Shown here piece by piece: positions 12,599 through 23,484 of a stretch of 64,000 nucleotides of DNA. The notes beneath the pieces were generated by a model that was not told the DNA's origin, did no database searches, and worked only from the letters and a program-made list of their open reading frames with translations. Where the stretch lies: NCBI RefSeq assembly GCF_000328705.1, contig NC_019673.1, positions 8,939,501 to 9,003,500 on the forward strand, in the 5' to 3' direction. The stretch is from Saccharothrix espanaensis DSM 44229 (GTDB taxonomy: Bacteria; Actinomycetota; Actinomycetes; Mycobacteriales; Pseudonocardiaceae). The position numbers and the translations under genes were made by a program. Within the stretch, counting starts at the first letter, position 1. Every line of letters begins with the position of its first letter.

Positions 12599-13002
12599 AG
12601 CCCCTGCTCGCCAGCGTGACGCGCTGGGTCCGCCACACCGTGGCCGACCACGCCGTCCGCCTACCCGCACCGCGCCCCCTTCTCGGTCCCCACGCCTCGG
12701 TCGACCCCGCCGCCGGCCAGGTGCCCGCCCAGGCTTCGGGCCGGTCCGCCGACCGAGCGCCTGACCTGGCGTTCGGCCCAACGCCCGCACCCCCGCCCCG
12801 AACCTTCGGCACCGCGCAGTCCGCCACCCCACCCCACCGCGCGCCCCGGACCCGTGCCACCGACAGCCGTCCTGTCGAAGGCCGTACCGCCGACAGCCAT
12901 GCCGGCGACAGCGGCGCCGGCGATAGCCACGCCACCGACCGCCGTGCCGGCGAGGGCCATGCCATTGCCGGCCGCGCCCGCCGGGCGGAGCGGGTCCGAT
13001 GA
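12595..13002 (+). CDS. Low-complexity ORF bridging ABC ATPase and permease
   Basis: 135 codons that exactly join the ATPase and the permease: its ATG overlaps the ATPase stop (ATGA at 12595) and its TGA overlaps the permease ATG (12999). Only the first 30 residues (MKPLLASVTRWVRHTVADHA) look protein-like. The rest is Pro/Ala/Arg-rich with a degenerate repeat of the kind GDSHATDRRAGEG. Both ends share GTCCGATGAAG, which suggests the spacer arose by duplication or insertion at the gene junction and stays open to keep translational coupling. No function can be assigned. Confidence 0.45.
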   Translation: MKPLLASVTRWVRHTVADHAVRLPAPRPLLGPHASVDPAAGQVPAQASGRSADRAPDLAFGPTPAPPPRTFGTAQSATPPHRAPRTRATDSRPVEGRTADSHAGDSGAGDSHATDRRAGEGHAIAGRARRAERVR

Positions 13003-15320
13003 AGCGCTGGCTGAGCGACCTCGCCCTGGGCGTCCGGCTGGCCCTGGGCGGCGGCCGCACCTCGTGGGTCCGGCTCGCCCTGACCGGCCTGGGCATCGGC
13101 TTCGGCGTGGCCGTCCTGCTGGCCGCGTCGTCCGTGCCGAGCATGCTGTCCGGCCGCGCGGAGCGCGCCGCCGCGAGCAAGGGCGTGGTCGCCGGCGACA
13201 CCAAGCCGACCTCGGACGTGCTCTACGTCGCCGAGTGGATGTCCAGCTATCGCGGCGAGTCGATCGTCGGCGACTTCGTCCTGCCGAGCGGCCCGGCCGC
13301 GCCGGTCCCGCCGGGCCTGACCGAGCTGCCCGGCGACGGCGAGATCGCGGTGTCGCCCGCCCTGGCGCGGCTGCTCGACTCCCCGGAGGGCGAGCTGCTC
13401 CGCGAGCGCTTCCCGCAGCACCGGGTCGGGCTGATCACCCAGCAGGGCCTCAACTCGCCGGAAGACCTGATGTTCGTGGCCGGCGACGCGACGGTGAAGC
13501 GCGACGACAAGGCGGCCGTCGTCTCCTACGGCGGCGAGCGGGAGGAGCGCACCCTCGATCCGGTGCTGTCGCTGCTGATCATGGTCGGCGTGGTGGCCCT
13601 GCTGTTCCCGGTCCTGGTGTTCGTCGGGATCAGCACCCGCCTCGCCGGCTCCGAGCGCGACCGGCGGCTGGCCGCGCTCCGGCTGGTCGGCGCGGGCGCG
13701 CGCCGGGTGCGCCGGATCGCCGCCGGCGAAGCGCTGCTCGGCGCGGTGACCGGACTGGTGGTCGGCGGGGTCCTGTTCCTGACCGCCCGTCAGTTCGTGG
13801 AGCACATCAGCCTGCTGGGCATCACCGTGTTCGTCTCCGACCTGACACCGACACCCTTGCTGACGGTGCTGATCCTGGTGCTGGTGCCGGTGCTGGCCGT
13901 GGTGACGTCGCTGATCTCCATGCGCCGCACGGTGATCGAGCCGCTGGGCGTGGTGCGCCGGAGCAAGCCGGTGCACCGGGTCATGTGGTGGCGGACGCTG
14001 CCGGTCTTCATCGGCACGGCGGCGCTGTGGAGCCAGTCCGGTCTGCTGGGCGGCTCGGAGAGCCAGGCGTCCGAGCCGATCGTGGTCGGCGGCATCCTGG
14101 TGCTGCTGCTCAGCATCCCGCTGCTGCTGCCGTGGGTGGTCGAACGCGCGGTGCGCAAGGTGCGCGGCGGCGCGCCGTCGTGGCAGCTCGCGATCCGCCG
14201 GCTGCAGATGGACAGCGGCACGGCGGCCCGGGTGGTCGGCGGCGTGTCGGTCGTGCTGGCCGGTGCCATCGCCGTCCAGTCGGTGCTGGCCAGCGCGGAG
14301 GCCAAGATCGTGGACCGCCCGGTCGACACCGCCGATCGCAGCCGCGTGGTGGTGAGCCTGATCGACTGGTCGGAGGAGAACGTCGAGCAGACCGTCGGCC
14401 TGCTGCGCCGGGCCGTCGACCCGAGCCGGGTCAACACGCTGCTCGGGTTCCAGTTCGAGTTCGACCCGACGAACCAGTACGGGGCGACGGTCGGCTCCTG
14501 CCAGGCGCTCAAGACCCAGGCGGACCTGGGCGACTGCCAGGACGGCGACGTCTTCTACGTCACCGGTCCCGCGGAGCTCGGCGCGGACGAGGCGGCGGAG
14601 CAGGCGAAGCTCCGGCCGGGCACGACCGTGACCGTGACCAAGGGGTACGACGACACCAAGGTCGTCGGTCCACAGTGGACCATCCCGCAGTACGAGGTGG
14701 TGAAGCAGCCCGAACGGCCCGGTGCCTACACCAACCGGGGCCTGCTGCTGACCCCGGCGGCGATGCGCGGGCTCGACATCGGGTTCAGCTACGGCACGAT
14801 CATGGTCGACGTCGACCGGGGTGATCCGGACCTGGTCGACCGGGTGGGCAACGCGATCAGCCCGATGACCTGGCGCGCGTACTTCTTCTACTTCGGCCAG
14901 ACCGACCCGGGCAAGCAGATCGAGCAGTTCCAGAGCATCCGGCAGGGCCTGCTGGCGGGCTCGCTGATCACCCTCCTGCTGGCCGGGGCCAGCCTGCTGA
15001 TCCTGGCGCTGGAGCAGGTGCGGGAACGCCGCCGCCCGCTGGCGGTGCTGGCCGCGAGCGGCGTCCCGCGCGGAGCGCTGAGCCGGTCGTTGCTGTGGCA
15101 GAACGCGGTACCCCTGGTGCTGGCCCTGCTGGTGGCGGTGGCCATCGGCAGCGGTCTGGCGGTGTTGCTGCTGCGGATCATCGAGCAACCGATCGTCATC
15201 GACTGGTCGGGCGTCGCGATCCTGAGCACCACCTCCGCCCTCCTGGTGGTCGTCGTGACCGCCCTGACCCTGCCCTCGATGAGACGCGCGACCGGCGCCC
15301 TGGGCCTGCGCTCGGAGTGA
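12999..15320 (+). CDS. FtsX-like ABC transporter permease (first)
   Basis: 773 residues. An N-terminal membrane helix (about 25-45) precedes a roughly 130-residue extracytoplasmic domain. A four-helix FtsX core follows (about 190-330, including GSERDRRLAALRLVGA, the usual coupling-helix motif). A second external domain and C-terminal helices contain the matching QVRERRRPLAVLAASGVPR. This ten-helix, two-FtsX-domain layout is typical of actinobacterial lipid or peptide exporters partnered with MacB-like ATPases. It is paralogous to the permease at 15734. Confidence 0.88.
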   Translation: MKRWLSDLALGVRLALGGGRTSWVRLALTGLGIGFGVAVLLAASSVPSMLSGRAERAAASKGVVAGDTKPTSDVLYVAEWMSSYRGESIVGDFVLPSGPAAPVPPGLTELPGDGEIAVSPALARLLDSPEGELLRERFPQHRVGLITQQGLNSPEDLMFVAGDATVKRDDKAAVVSYGGEREERTLDPVLSLLIMVGVVALLFPVLVFVGISTRLAGSERDRRLAALRLVGAGARRVRRIAAGEALLGAVTGLVVGGVLFLTARQFVEHISLLGITVFVSDLTPTPLLTVLILVLVPVLAVVTSLISMRRTVIEPLGVVRRSKPVHRVMWWRTLPVFIGTAALWSQSGLLGGSESQASEPIVVGGILVLLLSIPLLLPWVVERAVRKVRGGAPSWQLAIRRLQMDSGTAARVVGGVSVVLAGAIAVQSVLASAEAKIVDRPVDTADRSRVVVSLIDWSEENVEQTVGLLRRAVDPSRVNTLLGFQFEFDPTNQYGATVGSCQALKTQADLGDCQDGDVFYVTGPAELGADEAAEQAKLRPGTTVTVTKGYDDTKVVGPQWTIPQYEVVKQPERPGAYTNRGLLLTPAAMRGLDIGFSYGTIMVDVDRGDPDLVDRVGNAISPMTWRAYFFYFGQTDPGKQIEQFQSIRQGLLAGSLITLLLAGASLLILALEQVRERRRPLAVLAASGVPRGALSRSLLWQNAVPLVLALLVAVAIGSGLAVLLLRIIEQPIVIDWSGVAILSTTSALLVVVVTALTLPSMRRATGALGLRSE

Positions 15321-15398
15321 CCACCCCGCCCAGCGCCGCCGCCCCCTCCCCTTGGGCGGCGGCGCACCCTGCTCCACGCGCCGCCCGGTCCCACGCAC

Positions 15399-15459
15399 GA
15401 CTGCCCAGCCCGACTGCCCAGCCCGACTGCCCAGCCCGACTGCCCAGCCCGACTGCCCA
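15399..15459. repeat. 13-bp tandem repeat, 4.7 copies
   Basis: Unit GACTGCCCAGCCC repeats exactly at 15399, 15412, 15425 and 15438, with a partial fifth copy at 15451. The last copy supplies the 5' arm of the adjacent hairpin. Confidence 0.95.
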
Positions 15460-15733: not shown

Positions 15734-17968
15734 GTGAGCACCCGGTGGGTGGCGGACCTGGTCCTCGGGGTCCGGCTGGCCGTCGGGGGCAGCCGGACCT
15801 CGTGGGCCAGGTTGGCGCTGACCGCGGCCGGCGTCGGCCTGGGTGTCCTGGTGCTGCTGCTGGCCGCGTCGATCGGCCCGGCCCGGGAAGCCAAGTCCGA
15901 ACGGGTCCAGGCCGCCGCGCTGGACCGGGCGGACACCCGACCGCCGCACGTCGGTCAGGCCACCGCGCCGCTGCGCGCCCGTGACGTGACAGTCTCCTGG
16001 CAGGGCCGCCGGATCCTCGGCGTGGAGCTGGCCGCGACCGGTGCCGACCGGCCGACGCCGCCCGGCGTCGGCCGGCTGCCCGCGCCGGGCGAGGTCGTGG
16101 TGTCGCCGGAGCTGCTCTACCTGATCCAGACCGACGACTCGGTGCGCGCCCGCTTCCCGGAGCGCGTGATCGGCGTCATCGCCGACGCGGGCCTGCCGAG
16201 ACCGAAGTCGCTGCTCTTCTACTCGGGCCTGCCCGAGGCGCTCGTCGCGGACGCGACCCCGGCCGCGGGCTTCGGCGTCACCGGCGAGCAGCCCACGCTG
16301 CTGCCGGTCCACCGGCTGCTGATGGTCTCCGCGATCGGTGCGCTGCTGGTGCCGCTCGGCATCTTCGTCCTGGTCGCCACCCGGCTCGGCGCGACCGGCC
16401 GGGACCGCCGGCTCGCCACGATCCGGCTGGTCGGGGCGAGCCGCGAGCGGATCCGCTGGATCGCCAGCGGCGAGATCCTGACCGGCGCGGTGCTCGGGCT
16501 GTTCGTCGGCGTCGCGCTGTTCTTCGCGGCCCGCCCGCTGGCCCGGTTCATCGAGGTCGAGGGGGTCGGGTTCTTCCCCACCGACCTGCTGCCCGACCCG
16601 CTGCTCGGGGCGCTGATCGGGGTCGGTGTGCCGGTGGTGGCCGTGGTGGCGGCGCTGGTCGCGCTGCGCACCGTCGAGGTCGGCCCGTTGGGCCTGGTCA
16701 AGACGCTCGCCACGGCCGGTGACGTGCCGGTCCGCCGGGCGTGGTGGCGGTTCGCGCTGCTGGGGGCGGGCGCGGTGCTGCTGGTGGTGATCTCGGTCGC
16801 GGACAGCTTCCGCGAGGTGGTGGCGGACTCGACGGCGACGATCCTGCTGGGCGTGGGGATCGGCCTGGTGCTGGCCGGCACCGGTGCGGTGCTGCCGTGG
16901 CTGGTGGGCCGGGTCACGGCGGTGGTGCGGCCGGAGGGGGTCGCGCCGATGCTCGCGGTGCGCGGGCTGCGATCCGACGCGGGGATGCCGCGCGTGCTGG
17001 CCGGGGTGGTCGTGGTGCTGACCGGGTCGCTGGCGTTGCAGGTCCTGCTCGGTGTCGCGGCCCGGGGCACCGCCGAGTCCGCGCCGGCGACCGAGGCGGG
17101 CCGCTGGGTGCTGACCGTGTCCGCGCACACCCCGACCCGTTCACTGGAGGAGGCCATCGCGCTGATCGGCGGGGTGCGGCGGGTGAGCGAGGTGCGCACG
17201 TACGAGCAGCCCTCCCCGGTGCCGGCGCTAGTCGTGAGCACGGACTGCGCCGAACTGGCGGACCGCTTCGAGGTGACGGACTGCGCGCCGGGTATGGCCT
17301 ACCGGACCGACGGCGGCCGCGAAGCGCCCGCACCCGGTTCCTCGTTCACCATCGACGGGCGCCCGTGGACGGTGCCGCAGGCGAAGGTGGTGCCCGGCCA
17401 GGCGAGCGGGCTGTTCGTCGCGGGCGGCTCGGACCCGGTGCTGACGTCCGCGCCGCCGTCCGAACTGGTCGTGGTCGGCAGCCCGGACCAGGCGTTCGCC
17501 GACCGCCTGCTGGCCGCGACCGGCCGTGTCGACCGGGGCGTGGCGCTGTCCACGGCGTACCACGACCTCCAGGTGGAGCTGTTCACGTCGCTGCGCGGCG
17601 GCGTGATCGGCGGGTCGGTGCTGCTGGTCCTGCTGGCCGTGGTCGGCCTGGCGGCGGCGGCCGTGGACCAGGTCTGGGAACGCCGTCGGCACACCGCCGT
17701 GCTGACCGCGAACGGCGTGCCGCGCCGGGTGCTCGCGGCGGCGGCGCTGTGGCAGTCGGCCATCCCCACCGCGCTGGGCATCTGCCTGGCCGTCCCGGTC
17801 GGGCTGGGCACGGCGTGGCTGGTGGTGCCGGCCGATCGCTTCCAGGTCGACTGGGTGGAACTGGCCACCACGGTCGGGCTGGCGGCGTTCGTGGTGCCGG
17901 CCGTGTCGCTGTGCACCCTGCCCGCCCTGCGCCACGCGATCCGACCGGAGAACCTGCGCACCGAATAA
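15734..17968 (+). CDS. FtsX-like ABC transporter permease (second)
   Basis: 744 residues from a GTG with GGAGG 8 nt upstream. Its N-terminus (RWVADLVLGVRLAVGGSRTS) is nearly the same as that of the first permease, and the order of helices and external domains is shared, including TGRDRRLATIRLVGA and QVWERRRHTAVLTANGVPRR. The two permeases share one ATPase, so a heterodimer is likely. The external domains have diverged more than the membrane parts. Confidence 0.88.
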   Translation: MSTRWVADLVLGVRLAVGGSRTSWARLALTAAGVGLGVLVLLLAASIGPAREAKSERVQAAALDRADTRPPHVGQATAPLRARDVTVSWQGRRILGVELAATGADRPTPPGVGRLPAPGEVVVSPELLYLIQTDDSVRARFPERVIGVIADAGLPRPKSLLFYSGLPEALVADATPAAGFGVTGEQPTLLPVHRLLMVSAIGALLVPLGIFVLVATRLGATGRDRRLATIRLVGASRERIRWIASGEILTGAVLGLFVGVALFFAARPLARFIEVEGVGFFPTDLLPDPLLGALIGVGVPVVAVVAALVALRTVEVGPLGLVKTLATAGDVPVRRAWWRFALLGAGAVLLVVISVADSFREVVADSTATILLGVGIGLVLAGTGAVLPWLVGRVTAVVRPEGVAPMLAVRGLRSDAGMPRVLAGVVVVLTGSLALQVLLGVAARGTAESAPATEAGRWVLTVSAHTPTRSLEEAIALIGGVRRVSEVRTYEQPSPVPALVVSTDCAELADRFEVTDCAPGMAYRTDGGREAPAPGSSFTIDGRPWTVPQAKVVPGQASGLFVAGGSDPVLTSAPPSELVVVGSPDQAFADRLLAATGRVDRGVALSTAYHDLQVELFTSLRGGVIGGSVLLVLLAVVGLAAAAVDQVWERRRHTAVLTANGVPRRVLAAAALWQSAIPTALGICLAVPVGLGTAWLVVPADRFQVDWVELATTVGLAAFVVPAVSLCTLPALRHAIRPENLRTE

Positions 17969-18145: not shown

Positions 18146-18694
18146 ATGCAAGATCAACCAAACGCCGAGCTGCTGGCCCTCGCCCACGCCGGCGACCAGC
18201 ACGCGTGGCAGGAGATCATCGACCGGCACATCCGGCTGGTGTGGGCGGTGGCCCGCTCGCACCGGCTGAGCCCGGAGGACGCGGCGGACGTCAACCAGGC
18301 GGTGTGGCTGATCCTGGCCGAGAACCTGACCACGATCCGGAACCCGGAGCGGCTCAGCGCGTGGCTCGCCACGACCGCCCGCCGCGAGTCGCTGGCGGTG
18401 CTCCGCCTGCGCGGCCGGGAACAACCGGTGGACCTGTGGGACTCGGTCGACGAGGACCCGACCCCGGAGGACCTGGTGGTCGACCTCGACACCGACTCCC
18501 ACCTGTGGCGCGCCTACACCGGGCTCACCGACCGCTGCCGGCAGATCCTGCACCTGTTCGCCTTCGCGCCGGAGATGCCGTTCCAGCAGGTGGCGGCGGC
18601 CGTCGGCATCCCGTCGAACAGCCTGGGGCCGACCCGCGGCCGCTGCCTGGACGTCCTGCGCCGCCGGCTGGCGCGGATGGAGGTCGTCCGATGA
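18146..18694 (+). CDS. ECF-type RNA polymerase sigma factor
   Basis: 182 residues. Region 2 covers about 10-85 (AWQEIIDRHIRLVWAVAR, AWLATTARRESLAVLR). Region 4 covers about 115-175 (LTDRCRQILHLF and PFQQVAAAVGIPSNSLGPTRGRCLDVLRRRL). No anti-sigma gene with a zinc-binding or membrane domain follows. Instead its stop overlaps the start of a small beta-sandwich protein and then a CHAT protease gene. The sigma factor probably governs this cluster or a stress regulon released by it (inference). Confidence 0.88.
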   Translation: MQDQPNAELLALAHAGDQHAWQEIIDRHIRLVWAVARSHRLSPEDAADVNQAVWLILAENLTTIRNPERLSAWLATTARRESLAVLRLRGREQPVDLWDSVDEDPTPEDLVVDLDTDSHLWRAYTGLTDRCRQILHLFAFAPEMPFQQVAAAVGIPSNSLGPTRGRCLDVLRRRLARMEVVR

Positions 18695-19113
18695 CCGACC
18701 GGCCCCTGCTGGACGCGCTCGCCGACCTGCTCGACCGCCTCGACCCGCCGCCGCACTCGCTGGCCGCGCTCGCCAGTGCCGCCCTCGCCGAACGCGCCGG
18801 AGCGGCCCTGACCCGGCTGATCACCGACTCCGCGCACACCGCCGACACCGGGATGCGCGGCACGTGCCGGGTCCGCACCCTGCGCTTCGCCGACCTCGAC
18901 CTGCGGCTGGAACCCACCGGGACGGGCCTGCGCGCCACCGGCCTGGCCCGCACCGGCACGCACGCGGTGACCGCGTGGCCGGGCGGCTCGCGCACGACAC
19001 CGGTCGACCCGACCGGCTGGTTCCACGTCGACCACGTCCCGCCGGGCCCGGTCCGGTTCGTGCTCCGCGACGAGGGCCGGCCCGACCTCTCGACCCGCTG
19101 GTTCGTCGCATGA
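18691..19113 (+). CDS. Small protein with carboxypeptidase-regulatory-like fold
   Basis: 140 residues, coupled by 4-bp overlaps to the sigma factor upstream and the CHAT gene downstream. Residues 1-55 are predicted helical and Ala/Leu-rich. Residues 60-140 are strand-rich and end in a TGWFHVDHVPPGPVRFVLRD pattern, the 'G-x-F-x-F-x-x-[VL]PPG' of transthyretin-like/carboxypeptidase-regulatory domains. It could be the sigma-factor partner or a protease substrate; neither is shown. Confidence 0.7.
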   Translation: MTDRPLLDALADLLDRLDPPPHSLAALASAALAERAGAALTRLITDSAHTADTGMRGTCRVRTLRFADLDLRLEPTGTGLRATGLARTGTHAVTAWPGGSRTTPVDPTGWFHVDHVPPGPVRFVLRDEGRPDLSTRWFVA

Positions 19114-21236
19114 CCCCCGCGCCGCACCACGAACGCGCCCTGGCCCTGGTCGAGCAGGGCCGGCTGCGCGCCGCCCACCACCTCACCACCCGGACCCTGG
19201 CCGGCGGCGACGACCCGGAGGTCCACCTGACCGCCGCGTGGATCGCCCTCGACCGGGGCGACGCGGAGACCTGCGCCCGGCACCTCGACGCGACCGCGTT
19301 CACCGGGTTGGCCCGCGCGAGGGCGCAGTGCCTGCGCGGACTCCTGCTGTGCCAGCAGGAAGCCCCGCGCCGGGCCGCCGCTGGCCTCACCCTGGCGGTG
19401 CGCTCCCTGCGCCGCCACGGCGACCGCCGCTGGCTGGCCAACGCCCTGACCGGACGCGGCATCGCCCGAGCCCACGCCGGCGACCCGGTCGGGGCGGACG
19501 CCGACTTCACCGCCGCGCACGCCCTGCTGACCGCGCTGGACGAACCGGTGCGGGCCGCGATGTGCCTGCACAACAGGGGTTTCGCCGCGATGCTCGCCGG
19601 CCGCACCCCCACCGCGCTGCGGCACTACGAGCAGGCCGCCCGCGAGGGCCTGCGCACGTCGAGCCGCCCGGAGGCGTTGGTGGACCGCGCCCAGGCCCTC
19701 CTCGACATCGGCCTGGTCCGCGAGGCCAGGGACGTCCTGCATCCCGCGATCACCCTGCTCACCGGCTGCGACCGGGGCTCCCGACTGCCCGAGGCCCTGC
19801 TCTTGGCGGCCCGCTGTGCGGTGCGGGACAACGATTCCCGCGCCGCGCGCGGCTACGCCGACCACGCCGAGGCGCTGTTCACCGCCCAGGGCCGCACCCG
19901 GTGGATCCCCGCCGCCCAGGCCGCGGCGCTCCAGGCCGGACGGCCGGGCACGCCCGCCAGGACCGCCCGGACCTGCGCGGAGCAGGGCCACCACGACGAA
20001 GCCGCCGAACTGCACCTCACCACCGCACCGGACCGGATCCCCCGGCACCGCGGCACGCCGAGGTCACGCGCGATCGGCTGGCTGGCCCGCGCCCGCACCG
20101 CGACGACCAGGCGCGCGGCCGCGGCGGCGTGCCACGCGGGACTGCGCCTGCACACCGCCGACACGTGGCCCGGCACGGAACTCGCCGACACCGCCCTGGA
20201 CCACGCCCTGAGCTGCCAGGACGCCCGCGCGGTCGTCCGCTGGGCAGAACGCCGGCACACCCAAACCCCCGCCCCGACCACCGACACCGCACGTCCGTTG
20301 ACCGAGCTGAGATCGGCCAGGACCCGGGGCGACCACGCCCGGATCGTCGCGCTGGAACGGGAGGTCCGCCGGCTCTCCCTGGCCGCGGGCACCACCCAGC
20401 GGCCACCCGTTCGGCTCGACGAACTCGCGGACGCGTTGGACGAGAACGCGATGCTCGTGTTCGTCCACCACCGAAGCCGGCTCGTCGCGGTGTCGATCAC
20501 CGCCGGCCGGTTCCGCCTGCACGACCTCGGCGACGCCCGGACCACCGCCGCCCACGCGACATCGTTGGAGCTGAAGGAGAACCGCCCCGCCGTCGACCAC
20601 CTGAACGCGCTGCTGACCCCGGCCGGCGAGCGCCCGTTGGTTATCGTGCCCAGCCAGGAGGTGGCCCGGGTGCCGTGGGCCGCGCTGCCCGCCGCGCGCG
20701 GCCGCCCGGTCTCGGTCGCCCCGTCGGCGACCGACTGGCTGGCCGCGTCCCGGACACCGCTCGCCGTCGACCGCCGGCTCTGGGTGGCCGGCCCGAACCT
20801 CGGCTTCGCCGAACAGGAAATCGACGCGCTCCAGCGCGCACACGGCGGAGAACGGGCCGGGACCGCCGCTTCGGCATTGTCGGAAATGGCCCGCGCGGAC
20901 GTCGTGCACATTGCCGCGCACGGCGTCCGGCGAACAGATCTGCCGTTGTTCTCGCACCTCGAACTCGAAGGCGGGCCACTGCACGGGTACGACTTCGACC
21001 ACCTCCGGAACGCGCCTTCGGTGGTCGTGCTGTCGGCGTGCGATTCGGGCCTGGCGAACGCGTTGGTGCGGCGCGGCGTGCGGGCGGTGGTCGCGAGCGT
21101 GCGGCCGGTGCCCGACGATCGCGTCGTCGGGCTCATGCTCGACCTCCACGCCCACCTGGACACCCCGGCGCAAACGCTTGCCCAAGCCCAGGAGAAGCAC
21201 GGCGACCTGGGCTTCACCTGCGTGGGCGCGGGCTAG
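19110..21236 (+). CDS. TPR-CHAT domain caspase-like protease
   Basis: 708 residues from the ATG at 19110, which overlaps the upstream stop. Residues 1-430 are helical repeats of TPR type (many AL-x-x-G-R and A-x-x-Y-x-x-A segments). Residues 440-708 form a CHAT domain: LVIVPSQEVARVPWAAL, then the catalytic dyad His604 in HIAAHG and Cys644 in VVLSACDSG. CHAT enzymes are clan CD cysteine proteases; TPR-CHAT proteins act in bacterial immune and signalling systems. With the coupled sigma factor and a convergent subtilase 19 bp away it looks like part of a proteolytic relay. No signal peptide, so it is cytoplasmic. Confidence 0.88.
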   Translation: MTPAPHHERALALVEQGRLRAAHHLTTRTLAGGDDPEVHLTAAWIALDRGDAETCARHLDATAFTGLARARAQCLRGLLLCQQEAPRRAAAGLTLAVRSLRRHGDRRWLANALTGRGIARAHAGDPVGADADFTAAHALLTALDEPVRAAMCLHNRGFAAMLAGRTPTALRHYEQAAREGLRTSSRPEALVDRAQALLDIGLVREARDVLHPAITLLTGCDRGSRLPEALLLAARCAVRDNDSRAARGYADHAEALFTAQGRTRWIPAAQAAALQAGRPGTPARTARTCAEQGHHDEAAELHLTTAPDRIPRHRGTPRSRAIGWLARARTATTRRAAAAACHAGLRLHTADTWPGTELADTALDHALSCQDARAVVRWAERRHTQTPAPTTDTARPLTELRSARTRGDHARIVALEREVRRLSLAAGTTQRPPVRLDELADALDENAMLVFVHHRSRLVAVSITAGRFRLHDLGDARTTAAHATSLELKENRPAVDHLNALLTPAGERPLVIVPSQEVARVPWAALPAARGRPVSVAPSATDWLAASRTPLAVDRRLWVAGPNLGFAEQEIDALQRAHGGERAGTAASALSEMARADVVHIAAHGVRRTDLPLFSHLELEGGPLHGYDFDHLRNAPSVVVLSACDSGLANALVRRGVRAVVASVRPVPDDRVVGLMLDLHAHLDTPAQTLAQAQEKHGDLGFTCVGAG

Positions 21237-21254
21237 CCGACCGCCCAGGCCGTT

Positions 21255-22427
21255 TCACCCAGTCACGGCCTGGGCGCTCACCGCCCGCTCGATGCCGGCC
21301 CGGCGGACAGCGTCAACGGCGTCGGCCTGGGAGACCCCTTCGTGCAACAGCCGCGCGAGGTCAGCCGCCACGCGCGGAGCGGCGAACGACGTCCCACTCC
21401 ACCGCGCACAGCCATACTCCCGCCCCTCCGCACCCCGTCCCTCCGCACCCCGCCGCCTTCCCCCTGCCGTCAACCAGACAAAACTGCTGGTCACATCCAC
21501 CCCCGGCGCGATCGCGTCGACCCACGGCCCGTGGTTGGAGAACGCCGCGTCCGCACCGACCGCCACCACCTCCGGCAGCGCCGCCGGCCACACCGGGCGC
21601 GAGGTGCCGCCGTTGCCCGCAGCGGCCACGACCACCCCGTCCAGCCTCCCGACCTCGTGCCGCAGCACGGGAGGGCAGCGGTCGTCGGCCGTGTGGCAGC
21701 CCGCCGTGAGCAGCACGACATCCGCCCCGCGCACCGCGCGCAGGCCGCGCGCGACGGTCAGATCGTCGGTCAGGCCGAGCGACGACAACACCCGCCGGGG
21801 CCGCACTTGGACGCCGGGCGCGTGACGCACCAGGACACCGGTCACGAACGTGCCGTGCCCCGCCTGCCGGTCCTGCCCCGGACGACCGTCCGCGTCGAGC
21901 ACCTCGGGCACGGCGGCGAACCAGCTCCGGTCGGCGAACCACGGGTGCGGGTCCAACCCGGTGTCGAGCACGGCGACGGTGACGGGCCAGGTCTCGTCGG
22001 GCGGCGGGGGCGGCGCGTCGGCCGGTGCGGGCAGCGGGCGGGCGGTGCCGATCATGATGGGGCTGCCGACGTGCACGTGGTTGGGCGCGACGTCGAGCCC
22101 GCTGTCCGCGGCGATCCGCACCGGGTGCTCGCCGGCCCGCAACCGGATCCGGACGAAGCCCGGCTCCGCAGTTGCGTCCACCCGGTCCACCCAACGGCGC
22201 AACCGGTCCACGGCCACCGGAACGCCGTCCGATCGGATCAGCAGTTCACCTGAACGGACCAGGCACTCACCGGGCCCGCCGGGATCGTGCACCGCCAGGT
22301 CGGGGTGCTCGGCGCGCCAGGACTCGGCGAGTTCCGGCAGCGAGATGACGTCGGAGCTGTCCACACCGGACAACCTGCCCGCTGTCCACACCGGACGCTC
22401 GTTGTGGTCACCCGATGCGCTGAACAC
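21255..22427 (-). CDS. Cytoplasmic S8 family serine peptidase (subtilase)
   Basis: 390 residues. The catalytic triad is complete: Asp155 (VAVLDTGLD), His191 (GHGTFVTGV) and Ser347 (WSGTSFAAP), with oxyanion Asn272 (AAAGNGG). There is no signal peptide. The N-terminal 140 residues hold an extra domain and a Pro linker. A repeated RRRGAEGRGAEGRE insert lies just before the Ser motif. The gene is convergent with the CHAT gene. Such subtilase/CHAT/sigma neighbourhoods suggest a shared regulatory cascade. GTG 22364 is an alternative start. Confidence 0.87.
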   Translation of the reverse strand: MFSASGDHNERPVWTAGRLSGVDSSDVISLPELAESWRAEHPDLAVHDPGGPGECLVRSGELLIRSDGVPVAVDRLRRWVDRVDATAEPGFVRIRLRAGEHPVRIAADSGLDVAPNHVHVGSPIMIGTARPLPAPADAPPPPPDETWPVTVAVLDTGLDPHPWFADRSWFAAVPEVLDADGRPGQDRQAGHGTFVTGVLVRHAPGVQVRPRRVLSSLGLTDDLTVARGLRAVRGADVVLLTAGCHTADDRCPPVLRHEVGRLDGVVVAAAGNGGTSRPVWPAALPEVVAVGADAAFSNHGPWVDAIAPGVDVTSSFVWLTAGGRRRGAEGRGAEGREYGCARWSGTSFAAPRVAADLARLLHEGVSQADAVDAVRRAGIERAVSAQAVTG

Positions 22428-22602
22428 GACGGACGGTGTTCACGGACGGGCGCGGTTACCCGGACAGCCGCACGACACCGCCCTTACGGGTGGGTTCCGT
22501 GCCAGAACGTTCGAAAACGCGGTGACCAGTGCTAGACATGGCAGAACGTCGACCTCGAACGGTCCGTCCCGTTCGCCGTACCCGGAACGGTGGTGATCCC
22601 CA

Positions 22603-23484
22603 GTGGCAGTCCCCGACGCGGTGCGCCGCAGCGGATCTCTGCTGCTCCGGGCGCTGGCGGTGGGCGGATTGGCCACGACGGCCTGGCTGCTCGGCACGGG
22701 TGCCGCAGCGGCCGAGGATCAGAACCACCCGGACGAGGTGTCGACGACGCTCGACGTGGTGAACATCGCGATCGACCCACCGCGCACCGCGACCGCGGAG
22801 CTGCTGGACGTGATCTTCACCGAACACCTGGCGCAGCCCGTCGTCCTGGAGCCGTCGATGCTCGCGCCCGTCCCGGTGACGCCGACCGTGGACGCCGGCC
22901 AGGCGGTCCACATGGCATCCCCGGTGACGGTGGCGGCGGCGGTTCCCGACGACGAGCCGACCAGTTTCAGCGGCGGCACCGAAGCCCGCGCCGACACGAG
23001 GACGGGCACGGTGACCAACACCCTGCCCGCGCCGGTGTACGAGGCGAAGGTCGCCGCGAAGGTCGCGGCCCGCCAAGCCGCGCAACAACCCCAGGACGTC
23101 CCGCCCGCACCGGAACCGGCGCCGGCCCCCGTCCAGCCCGTCACCGTCCCGCAGTCCCCGGTGACCGCGATCCCCCAGTACGCACCGCCCCCGGCCCAGG
23201 CGACGTCGGACGACGAGCCCGCCGCCGAGCCGCTGGTGACGTGGGAGAACCCGGAACCCGCACCCACCGCCCCGGCACCGCAACAGGCCCCGGCACCGAC
23301 CGCGCCGACCACGGCGTCGTCCTGTGGGCACGACAGCTCGAACGGCGGCCACCGCGGTGGCGTGATCGCGTCGGCGACCAGCCAGTCCGGCCTGATCCCG
23401 CCGTCGGTGTGGTCGGTCGAGCAGCGCGAGGACGGCCGTTCCCCGGGCAGCGTCCAAGGCCTGCCCAGCACGTCACCCGACTGA
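22603..23484 (+). CDS. Secreted Pro/Ala-rich protein
   Basis: 293 residues from a GTG with weak SD. A signal peptide is evident: basic RRSG, hydrophobic LLLRALAVGGLATTAWLLG, then AAAAE as a cleavage site near residue 36. The mature part has a short ordered region (40-90), then disordered Pro/Ala repeats, and a C-terminal segment with a lone Cys. It is probably a wall-spanning or surface protein. No family recognised. Confidence 0.65.
   Translation: MAVPDAVRRSGSLLLRALAVGGLATTAWLLGTGAAAAEDQNHPDEVSTTLDVVNIAIDPPRTATAELLDVIFTEHLAQPVVLEPSMLAPVPVTPTVDAGQAVHMASPVTVAAAVPDDEPTSFSGGTEARADTRTGTVTNTLPAPVYEAKVAAKVAARQAAQQPQDVPPAPEPAPAPVQPVTVPQSPVTAIPQYAPPPAQATSDDEPAAEPLVTWENPEPAPTAPAPQQAPAPTAPTTASSCGHDSSNGGHRGGVIASATSQSGLIPPSVWSVEQREDGRSPGSVQGLPSTSPD

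What the first reader, a model, noticed from the sequence alone, without database searches (positions are those of the whole stretch)
18146..22427. Sigma factor / beta-sandwich protein / TPR-CHAT protease / cytoplasmic subtilase module
Three genes are welded by 4-bp overlaps: an ECF sigma factor without a recognisable anti-sigma, a 140-residue transthyretin-like protein, and a TPR-CHAT protease with His604/Cys644 intact. A subtilase with a full triad and no signal peptide is convergent 19 bp away. This combines a transcriptional output with two different proteases in one cytoplasm. A sensible model is that the TPR-CHAT enzyme, on sensing a trigger, cleaves the small protein (a sigma inhibitor) or activates the subtilase, in the manner of caspase-like immune relays. 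The small protein and the lack of an anti-sigma are the novel parts.
Basis: partly seen in the sequence, partly recalled or inferred. Interest (0 to 1): 0.8.

Follow-up and report, generated by a model that had tools for sequence, protein, structure and literature searches.

The report
Protease-gated sigma factor module
A conserved four-gene set in actinobacteria joins a gene-switching sigma factor and a small protein encoded with it to two proteases, one caspase-like; the caspase-like protease is predicted to cut the small protein at a near-invariant arginine, which would switch genes on without a CRISPR system.

Summary
In detail: sigma, a 140-aa protein and TPR-CHAT overlap by ATGA, a subtilase converges 18 nt away, catalytic residues are intact. 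In 26 of 26 other family genomes with a strong TPR-CHAT match, sigma, small protein and TPR-CHAT stand in this order, with a related subtilase nearby in 21. Across 198 Actinomycetota genomes, 18 of 22 small-protein relatives follow a related sigma and 14 lie within 8 kb of CHAT (0.28 expected). The window's genome has three full sets. The context is not new: a review reports carboxypeptidase, subtilase and CHAT proteins around group ECF54 and proposes proteolytic control without an anti-sigma. New here: the small protein as sigma partner, fused to sigma in Kibdelosporangium, with a helix/DPxP piece, a flexible hinge with a near-invariant arginine (142 of 148 rows) and a beta-sandwich. Best model: it restrains sigma, TPR-CHAT cuts the hinge, the subtilase amplifies or finishes. 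Binding, sign of regulation, cleavage and trigger are untested; AlphaFold of the fusion predicts no docking (pTM 0.32). Downstream synteny in three genera speaks against a mobile immune island.

The parts
18146..18694 (+). ECF-type sigma factor (sigma2 + sigma4), 182 aa
18691..19113 (+). small sigma-partner protein, 140 aa; start overlaps the sigma stop by ATGA
   Evidence: conserved family; fused to sigma in genus g27 = Kibdelosporangium by protein identity
18700..18801 (+). N-terminal helices (residues 4-17 and 22-37) with the D18-P-x-P21 motif
   Evidence: AlphaFold model, mean pLDDT 86; Pro21 148 of 148 and Asp18 141 of 148 rows
18856..18858 (+). codon of Arg56, the near-invariant arginine in the predicted hinge (V-R-G in most relatives); proposed cut site
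   Evidence: Arg in 142 of 148 rows, 145 of which have a residue there; residues 50-61 are coil, mean pLDDT 58 over 51-60
18874..19110 (+). C-terminal beta-sandwich of the small protein
19110..21236 (+). TPR-CHAT caspase-like protease, 708 aa; start overlaps the small gene's stop by ATGA
   Evidence: PF12770 80 bits over 24, TPR matches just below cut-off; profile of 16 relatives hits TPR folds and, in the CHAT part, chains named Csx29 or CHAT domain protein, E 0.009-0.019
20919..20921 (+). catalytic His604 codon
   Evidence: invariant in 16 rows and 53 non-gap rows
21039..21041 (+). catalytic Cys644 codon
   Evidence: invariant in 16 rows and 53 non-gap rows
21255..22427 (-). subtilase (S8) without a visible signal peptide, 390 aa, convergent, 18 nt from the CHAT gene
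   Evidence: PF00082 63 bits over 21.8; Asp155/His191/Ser347/Asn272 invariant in 14 rows
22462..22487 (-). promoter-like element upstream of the subtilase (GTAAGG-N16-GTCC here; GGAAGG-N16-GTCC in relatives)
   Evidence: exact GGAAGG-N16-GTCC on the subtilase strand in 21 of 22 genome-contig loci, the 22nd being cut; not seen upstream of sigma there; function not tested

Best explanation
This is a conserved gene module, likely a cytoplasmic signalling relay, in which the small protein is predicted to hold its ECF sigma factor in check until the TPR-CHAT protease would cut it at a near-invariant hinge arginine, and the subtilase likely amplifies or finishes that proteolysis. Shown here: the genes travel together; sigma and small protein are translationally coupled in the window and most relatives checked and, in one genus, are one polypeptide encoded directly before TPR-CHAT; both proteases keep their catalytic residues; the hinge arginine is near-invariant. 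Inferred: the N-terminal helix/DPxP piece contacts sigma near sigma4 (in the fusion the sigma C-terminal helix takes the place of helix 1); cleavage at Arg56 separates that piece from the beta-sandwich and frees or activates sigma; the TPR region senses the trigger. Trigger and regulon are unknown.
For: Linkage: all four genes in 20 of 22 genome-contig loci, the other two cut by contig ends. In the family, 26 of 99 other genomes have a TPR-CHAT match at E 1e-40 or better; in 26 of 26 sigma and small protein stand before it on the same strand, and 21 of 26 have a related subtilase within the stretch seen (20 loci, six). Chosen by the small protein alone: 22 loci in 16 of 198 Actinomycetota genomes, sigma directly upstream in 18, CHAT within 8 kb in 14 (0.28 expected from CHAT density), related S8 within 8 kb in 13. 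All 16 small-positive genomes have CHAT against 26 of 182 others, Fisher p 1e-12, not corrected for phylogeny or genome size. Own genome: 5 of 5 small proteins follow a sigma, 3 of 5 are full sets. Coupling: 4-bp overlap in 16 of 21 genome-contig loci. Fusion: 3 of 3 genomes of genus g27 plus eight database proteins, three of them named Kibdelosporangium. Hinge: Arg56 in 142 of 148 rows, in a 12-residue coil; in the fusion Arg195 is 11 of 11, in a stretch of pLDDT under 50. Precedent: Csx29 cuts Csx30, which binds and blocks an ECF-like sigma (PMC10028731, passages).
Against: AlphaFold of the natural fusion gives pTM 0.32 and disordered linkers: no docking of the sandwich on sigma is predicted. 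No complex prediction was possible. The small protein's sandwich matches only generic folds and its profile no solved protein meaningfully; similarity to anti-sigma families was not tested beyond Pfam and NCBIfam. 8 of 22 small-protein loci have no CHAT within 8 kb (one of them, L099, with only 3.2 kb of DNA on one side) and 4 of 22 no related sigma; some of these keep the arginine, so it does not need a neighbouring CHAT. Three other genomes of the same genus have no TPR-CHAT match at E 1e-40. Five of 26 family loci show no related subtilase nearby. Arg56 could be structural. The published ECF54 proposal is proteolysis of sigma itself.
Confidence: 0.4

Rival explanations
1. Proteases act directly on sigma (the published ECF54 idea): TPR-CHAT and subtilase keep sigma low by degrading it, and the small protein is an adaptor that presents sigma to them.
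For: Proposed for ECF54 from gene context (PMC8999054 section 3.3); an adaptor would also be coupled to or fused with sigma.
Against: The conserved flexible arginine is in the small protein (no such scan was made of sigma); sigma-small pairs without a nearby CHAT exist.
Confidence: 0.25
2. The small protein is a positive cofactor or conformational switch of sigma (like C-terminal extensions of other ECF groups) that binds a ligand through its beta-sandwich; the proteases are co-regulated outputs or act elsewhere.
Against: Leaves the strong linkage with CHAT (14 of 22 against 0.28 expected; 26 of 26 in the family) and the hinge arginine unexplained; the fold match is generic.
Confidence: 0.2
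3. An abortive-infection or immune relay: a phage trigger activates TPR-CHAT, which activates the subtilase as a suicide protease, with sigma as alarm.
For: A TPR-CHAT protease acts in CRISPR type III-E; CHAT-S8 pairs recur, also apart from sigma; PADLOC's subtilase model matches the S8 protein at 33.3 bits.
Against: Downstream synteny in 21 of 22 loci of three genera, no CRISPR-like array in the window, no small-protein hit in plasmids, no PADLOC hit for sigma or small protein.
Confidence: 0.1

Closest known systems
ECF54 sigma-factor group (as reported in PMC8999054, which cites Casas-Pastor 2021 and Huang 2015)
   Same: ECF sigma without a recognised anti-sigma, with carboxypeptidase, subtilase and CHAT proteins in its context; proteolytic control proposed
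   Different: [quoted passage not shown] here the small protein is put forward as sigma partner and protease substrate. The two original papers were not held and may say more.
CASP/Craspase circuit of CRISPR type III-E: Csx29 (TPR-CHAT), Csx30 (sigma inhibitor), CASP-sigma
   Same: TPR-CHAT protease, an ECF-like sigma, and a protein that (there shown, here inferred) inhibits the sigma and is cut
   Different: No CRISPR array in the window; the 140-aa protein is far smaller than the 565-residue Csx30; an added subtilase; similarity to Csx29 only at E 0.009 and through a profile. Passages of PMC10028731 seen.
Calp system of type III CRISPR (CalpL protease, CalpT, CalpS sigma; roles of CalpT and CalpS recalled)
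   Same: a protease starts a transcriptional response through a sigma-holding protein
   Different: SAVED-Lon protease triggered by cyclic tetra-adenylate; only search-listing abstract seen
EACC2-caspase systems with ECF sigma and a TPR protein (PMC8195603)
   Same: caspase-like peptidase linked to an ECF sigma, activation by proteolysis proposed
   Different: built on EACC2 and TRADD-N domains, not on TPR-CHAT, a small sandwich protein and a subtilase (passages)

Membership tests
ECF sigma factor | sigma2 and sigma4 regions in a short protein | tested here: met
   TIGR02937 and Sigma70_r2 over cut-off; no Pfam sigma4 hit, but sigma2 and sigma4 of the fused homologue match solved sigma factors
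ECF54 | group-specific sigma profile of the ECF classification | not testable with these tools
   classification models and papers not held
ECF54 | carboxypeptidase-type, subtilase and CHAT proteins in the context, no recognised anti-sigma | tested here: met
   definition from PMC8999054; the carboxypeptidase-regulatory match is below cut-off for the window's protein and reaches E 0.01 or better in 2 of 19 relatives
CHAT protease (PF12770) | profile match and His/Cys dyad | tested here: met
   80 bits over 24; His604/Cys644 invariant
Subtilase S8 | profile match and Asp/His/Ser triad | tested here: met
   63 bits over 21.8; 14 of 14 rows
Carboxypeptidase regulatory-like domain (PF13620) | score over curated cut-off | tested here: not met
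   14.2 bits against 32.3 for the window's protein
Anti-sigma factor | binds and inhibits its sigma | not testable with these tools
   no complex prediction available; fusion model shows no docking, pTM 0.32
Craspase / type III-E | CRISPR array beside the TPR-CHAT gene | tested here: not met
   four direct-repeat families in the window, all abutting tandem repeats of 13- or 33-nt spacing, none CRISPR-like
Craspase / type III-E | Cas7-11 gene beside the TPR-CHAT gene | tested here: inconclusive
   no candidate seen by eye among ORFs of 14-27 kb (the longest, 1059 aa, is antisense to a permease gene); no Cas profile was run
Craspase / type III-E | TPR-CHAT protease homologous to Csx29 | tested here: inconclusive
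   profile of 16 relatives hits Csx29 and other CHAT chains at E 0.009-0.019; the single sequence does not

The most novel reading that the evidence does not exclude
A CRISPR-free counterpart of the Craspase circuit, spread through actinobacteria and run in several parallel copies per genome: a new family of soluble anti-sigma factors made of a helix/DPxP clamp and a beta-sandwich, joined by a V-R-G hinge that an arginine-specific, separase-like TPR-CHAT protease cuts to launch a transcription programme, with a subtilase as second protease of the relay.
Probability: 0.28. Interest if true: 0.82.

Novelty: new variant of a known kind. Interest (0 to 1): 0.6.

Why it matters
If true, caspase-like proteases gate transcription in ordinary actinobacterial physiology, and the type III-E CRISPR circuit would have a CRISPR-free parallel. 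It gives sigma factors described as lacking an anti-sigma a concrete candidate regulator and a single-residue test (R56A).

Tried and rejected
Mobile or defence island: not favoured, since four downstream genes keep order and strand in 21 of 22 loci, PADLOC gives no hit for sigma or small protein and only BovA (14.4 bits), subtilase (33.3 bits) and IetS (17 bits or less) models for the proteases, the window has no CRISPR-like repeats, and the small protein has no tblastn hit in plasmids (CHAT was not searched there). The CHAT protein hits one unannotated phage record over 19% of its length.

Autoregulation through a shared promoter: the element conserved upstream of the subtilase was not seen upstream of sigma. 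A cut site in the subtilase linker was considered and dropped because a proline follows the candidate arginine.

Literature: searches were read as listings (the lists of 9, 19 and 76 are cut at 20, 20 and 8 papers of 101, 207 and 16); among the listed papers opened, only PMC8999054 names ECF54's context. The two original papers are not held, so the small protein's role may already be in print.

Choices and dropped rows: A1 uses 19 of the small proteins; A6 14 subtilases; A7 16 TPR-CHAT proteins; A5 uses 13 fused or partly fused rows and 18 sigma-only rows out of the 140 proteins and the loci. One search picks the start codon nearest to a 4-bp overlap, so it can favour that answer. In one search L051 got a wrong frame and L063 none; one search has both. 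L042's small frame is doubtful but the profile finds the protein (L129). The 148 rows are distinct sequences, not independent ones. score at most 11 to 20 candidates per genome, so absences there are weak.

Full report
The observation. Both operon junctions are ATGA. Sigma passes TIGR02937 and Sigma70_r2, the third protein passes CHAT, the fourth Peptidase_S8; the small protein passes nothing. The CHAT dyad (His604, Cys644) and the subtilase triad are invariant in the relatives aligned.

Linkage close by. A scan of genome contigs with the TPR-CHAT protein gave 22 loci: Saccharothrix algeriensis, two Umezawaea, 18 Lentzea and one record titled Nocardia. A related sigma lies upstream in 21 of 22 (the exception starts at a contig end) and a related subtilase convergent downstream in 21 of 22 (the exception is a contig that ends inside CHAT), so 20 of 22 show the whole set. 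An open frame for the small protein lies between sigma and CHAT in all 21 that hold sigma. In 16 of these 21 the sigma stop and small start overlap by 4 bp; in L051, L053, L055, L063 and L064 there is a gap of about 50 to 135 nt. All 20 unfused rows from the window's genome and the genome-search loci also show the overlap, but these include the window itself, L013, two loci seen twice, L042 with a doubtful frame, and species repeated from genome contigs; they are not independent.

The family. In 100 genomes of the family (own included) 27 have a TPR-CHAT match at E 1e-40 or better, the window's among them; the three other genomes drawn from the same genus have none at that threshold. For 20 of the 26 others I fetched about 17-18 kb and searched with profiles built here: sigma, small protein and TPR-CHAT stand in this order on one strand in 20 of 20, with a related subtilase in 15 of 20. 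In 13 of those 15 the subtilase is upstream of sigma on the same strand, in two (L122, L130) convergent. In L122, L126 and L127 the sigma and small hits are about 360-420 nt apart, so tight coupling is not universal. The remaining six genomes (L017, L019, L031/L043 split over two contigs, L032, L033, L034) show sigma, small protein and subtilase around CHAT. In sum 26 of 26 have sigma and small protein, 21 of 26 a related subtilase. The set was chosen by CHAT, so it says nothing on CHAT-free sigma-small pairs.

Synteny. Downstream of the module in the genome-contig loci, homologues of the genes at 22603, 24311, 25825 and 26432 keep order and strand in 21 of 22 (L065 ends too early). Upstream, only S. 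algeriensis has the two permease genes as in the window; in 20 others both permease queries hit one and the same frame on the opposite strand, and L062 ends too early. So the place is resident and inherited vertically in these genera, with a rearranged upstream side.

Linkage far away. To avoid choosing loci by CHAT, I searched 198 Actinomycetota genomes with the profile of 19 small proteins (20 candidates scored per genome): 22 places in 16 genomes. In the surrounding DNA (L099 has only 3.2 kb on one side), 18 of 22 have a sigma directly upstream on the same strand, 14 of 22 a CHAT gene within 8 kb and 13 of 22 a related subtilase. From the CHAT density of the same genomes, 0.28 would be expected within 8 kb. 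Gene order varies, so the link is not one frozen operon. All 16 genomes hold CHAT, against 26 of the other 182 (phylogeny and genome size not corrected). In four places (L094, L099, L107 and one of two in L101) no related sigma is next door. CHAT-subtilase neighbours also occur apart from the small protein, for example at G141:C308, G141:C248, G185:C44, G288:C170 and G261:C3. It looks as if two tight pairs, sigma with small protein and CHAT with subtilase, are often combined.

The same genome. The window's genome (9,360,653 bases) has five small-protein relatives, each behind one of the six best sigma relatives; the sixth sigma has none within the 14 kb fetched, and the next sigma drops from E 1e-26 to 2e-9. 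Three of the five (window, L011, L013) are full sets; L090 and L091 are sigma and small protein alone. There are 16 CHAT and 37 S8 matches in all.

The small protein. The 19-row alignment has invariant M1, P19, P21, R56, F66, G84, G109, F111, P117, G119. In 148 distinct rows (database proteins plus loci, not independent), P21 is 148, D18 141, R56 142 (145 have a residue there), F66 146, G109 147. AlphaFold (mean pLDDT 86) gives helices 4-17 and 22-37, coil at 50-61 with mean pLDDT 58 in 51-60, and a sandwich from 62 on. R56 therefore sits in the hinge, with V before it in 112 and G after it in 114 of 148 rows. Databases call these proteins hypothetical or carboxypeptidase-regulatory-like.

The fusion. 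In three of three genomes drawn from one genus (g27), sigma and small protein are one open frame of 269-272 residues directly before CHAT. A protein search finds the same architecture in eight further proteins, three of them named Kibdelosporangium (P0113, P0116, P0118) and five unnamed; two partial rows also carry that name. In the fusion, helix 1 of the small protein is replaced by the end of sigma4; DPxP, a hinge with an invariant arginine (Arg195, 11 of 11; Arg185 is invariant too) and the sandwich remain. That ties the small protein physically to sigma in this genus. AlphaFold of the fusion (pLDDT 72.8, pTM 0.32) shows sigma2 and sigma4 that match solved sigma factors and a sandwich on linkers with stretches 166-188 and 191-198 under pLDDT 50. 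It predicts no docking, which does not support intramolecular inhibition and does not rule it out.

Mechanism. I commit to this: the small protein clamps sigma through its N-terminal piece and anchors it through the sandwich; TPR-CHAT, activated through its TPR part, cuts after Arg56; the subtilase amplifies or finishes. Shown: gene linkage, coupling, fusion, intact catalytic residues, hinge arginine. Inferred: binding, inhibition, cleavage, order of the proteases, trigger. That some clan CD proteases (separase, metacaspases) prefer arginine before the cut is recalled, from no call. The closest worked-out precedent is Csx29-Csx30-CASP-sigma: Csx30 binds the sigma, blocks its DNA binding and is cut by the TPR-CHAT protease, between residues 427 and 429 (PMC10028731, passages). 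By sequence the CHAT part of this family is nearest, in the PDB, to chains named Csx29 or CHAT domain protein, but weakly (E 0.009-0.019).

What is known. A review (PMC8999054; [quoted passage not shown] The window's module fits that description, so the context is known; ECF54 membership by its own profile could not be tested. What I add is the small protein as a sigma partner, the fusion, the hinge arginine, several sets in one genome and the linkage counts.

Verdict. I rate it a new variant of a known kind.

Noticed in passing
22462-22487 (minus strand) and the same place in L046-L064, L066, L067: A conserved promoter-like element GGAAGG-N16-GTCC upstream of the subtilase (exact in 21 of 22 loci, GTAAGG in the window), beside a TTCGnA-N17-TAGACAT-like promoter for the divergent gene at 22603 (the latter by eye). 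Not found upstream of sigma.
   Followed up: partly
22603-23484 (+): Conserved divergent neighbour encoding a proline/alanine-rich protein with a signal-like N-terminus (by eye) and no Pfam match.
   Followed up: no
L094, L099, L107: Small-protein relatives without a related sigma next door; in L094 a frame resembling an AMP-forming ligase (by eye) follows.
   Followed up: partly
L108 (G000 7649847-7650377): A sixth close sigma relative in the same genome, in a longer open frame, with no small protein, CHAT or module-type subtilase in the 14 kb fetched.
   Followed up: no
L049-L067 except L062, upstream of sigma: In Lentzea a long palindrome TTGTCCACAGG...CCTGTGGACAA, terminator-like or DnaA-box-like, between the upstream gene and sigma (by eye).
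   Followed up: no
12999-15320 and 15734-17968 (+): Two large FtsX-like permease genes (family by eye) upstream of the module, with a 13-nt tandem repeat at 15395-15459 between them.
   Followed up: no
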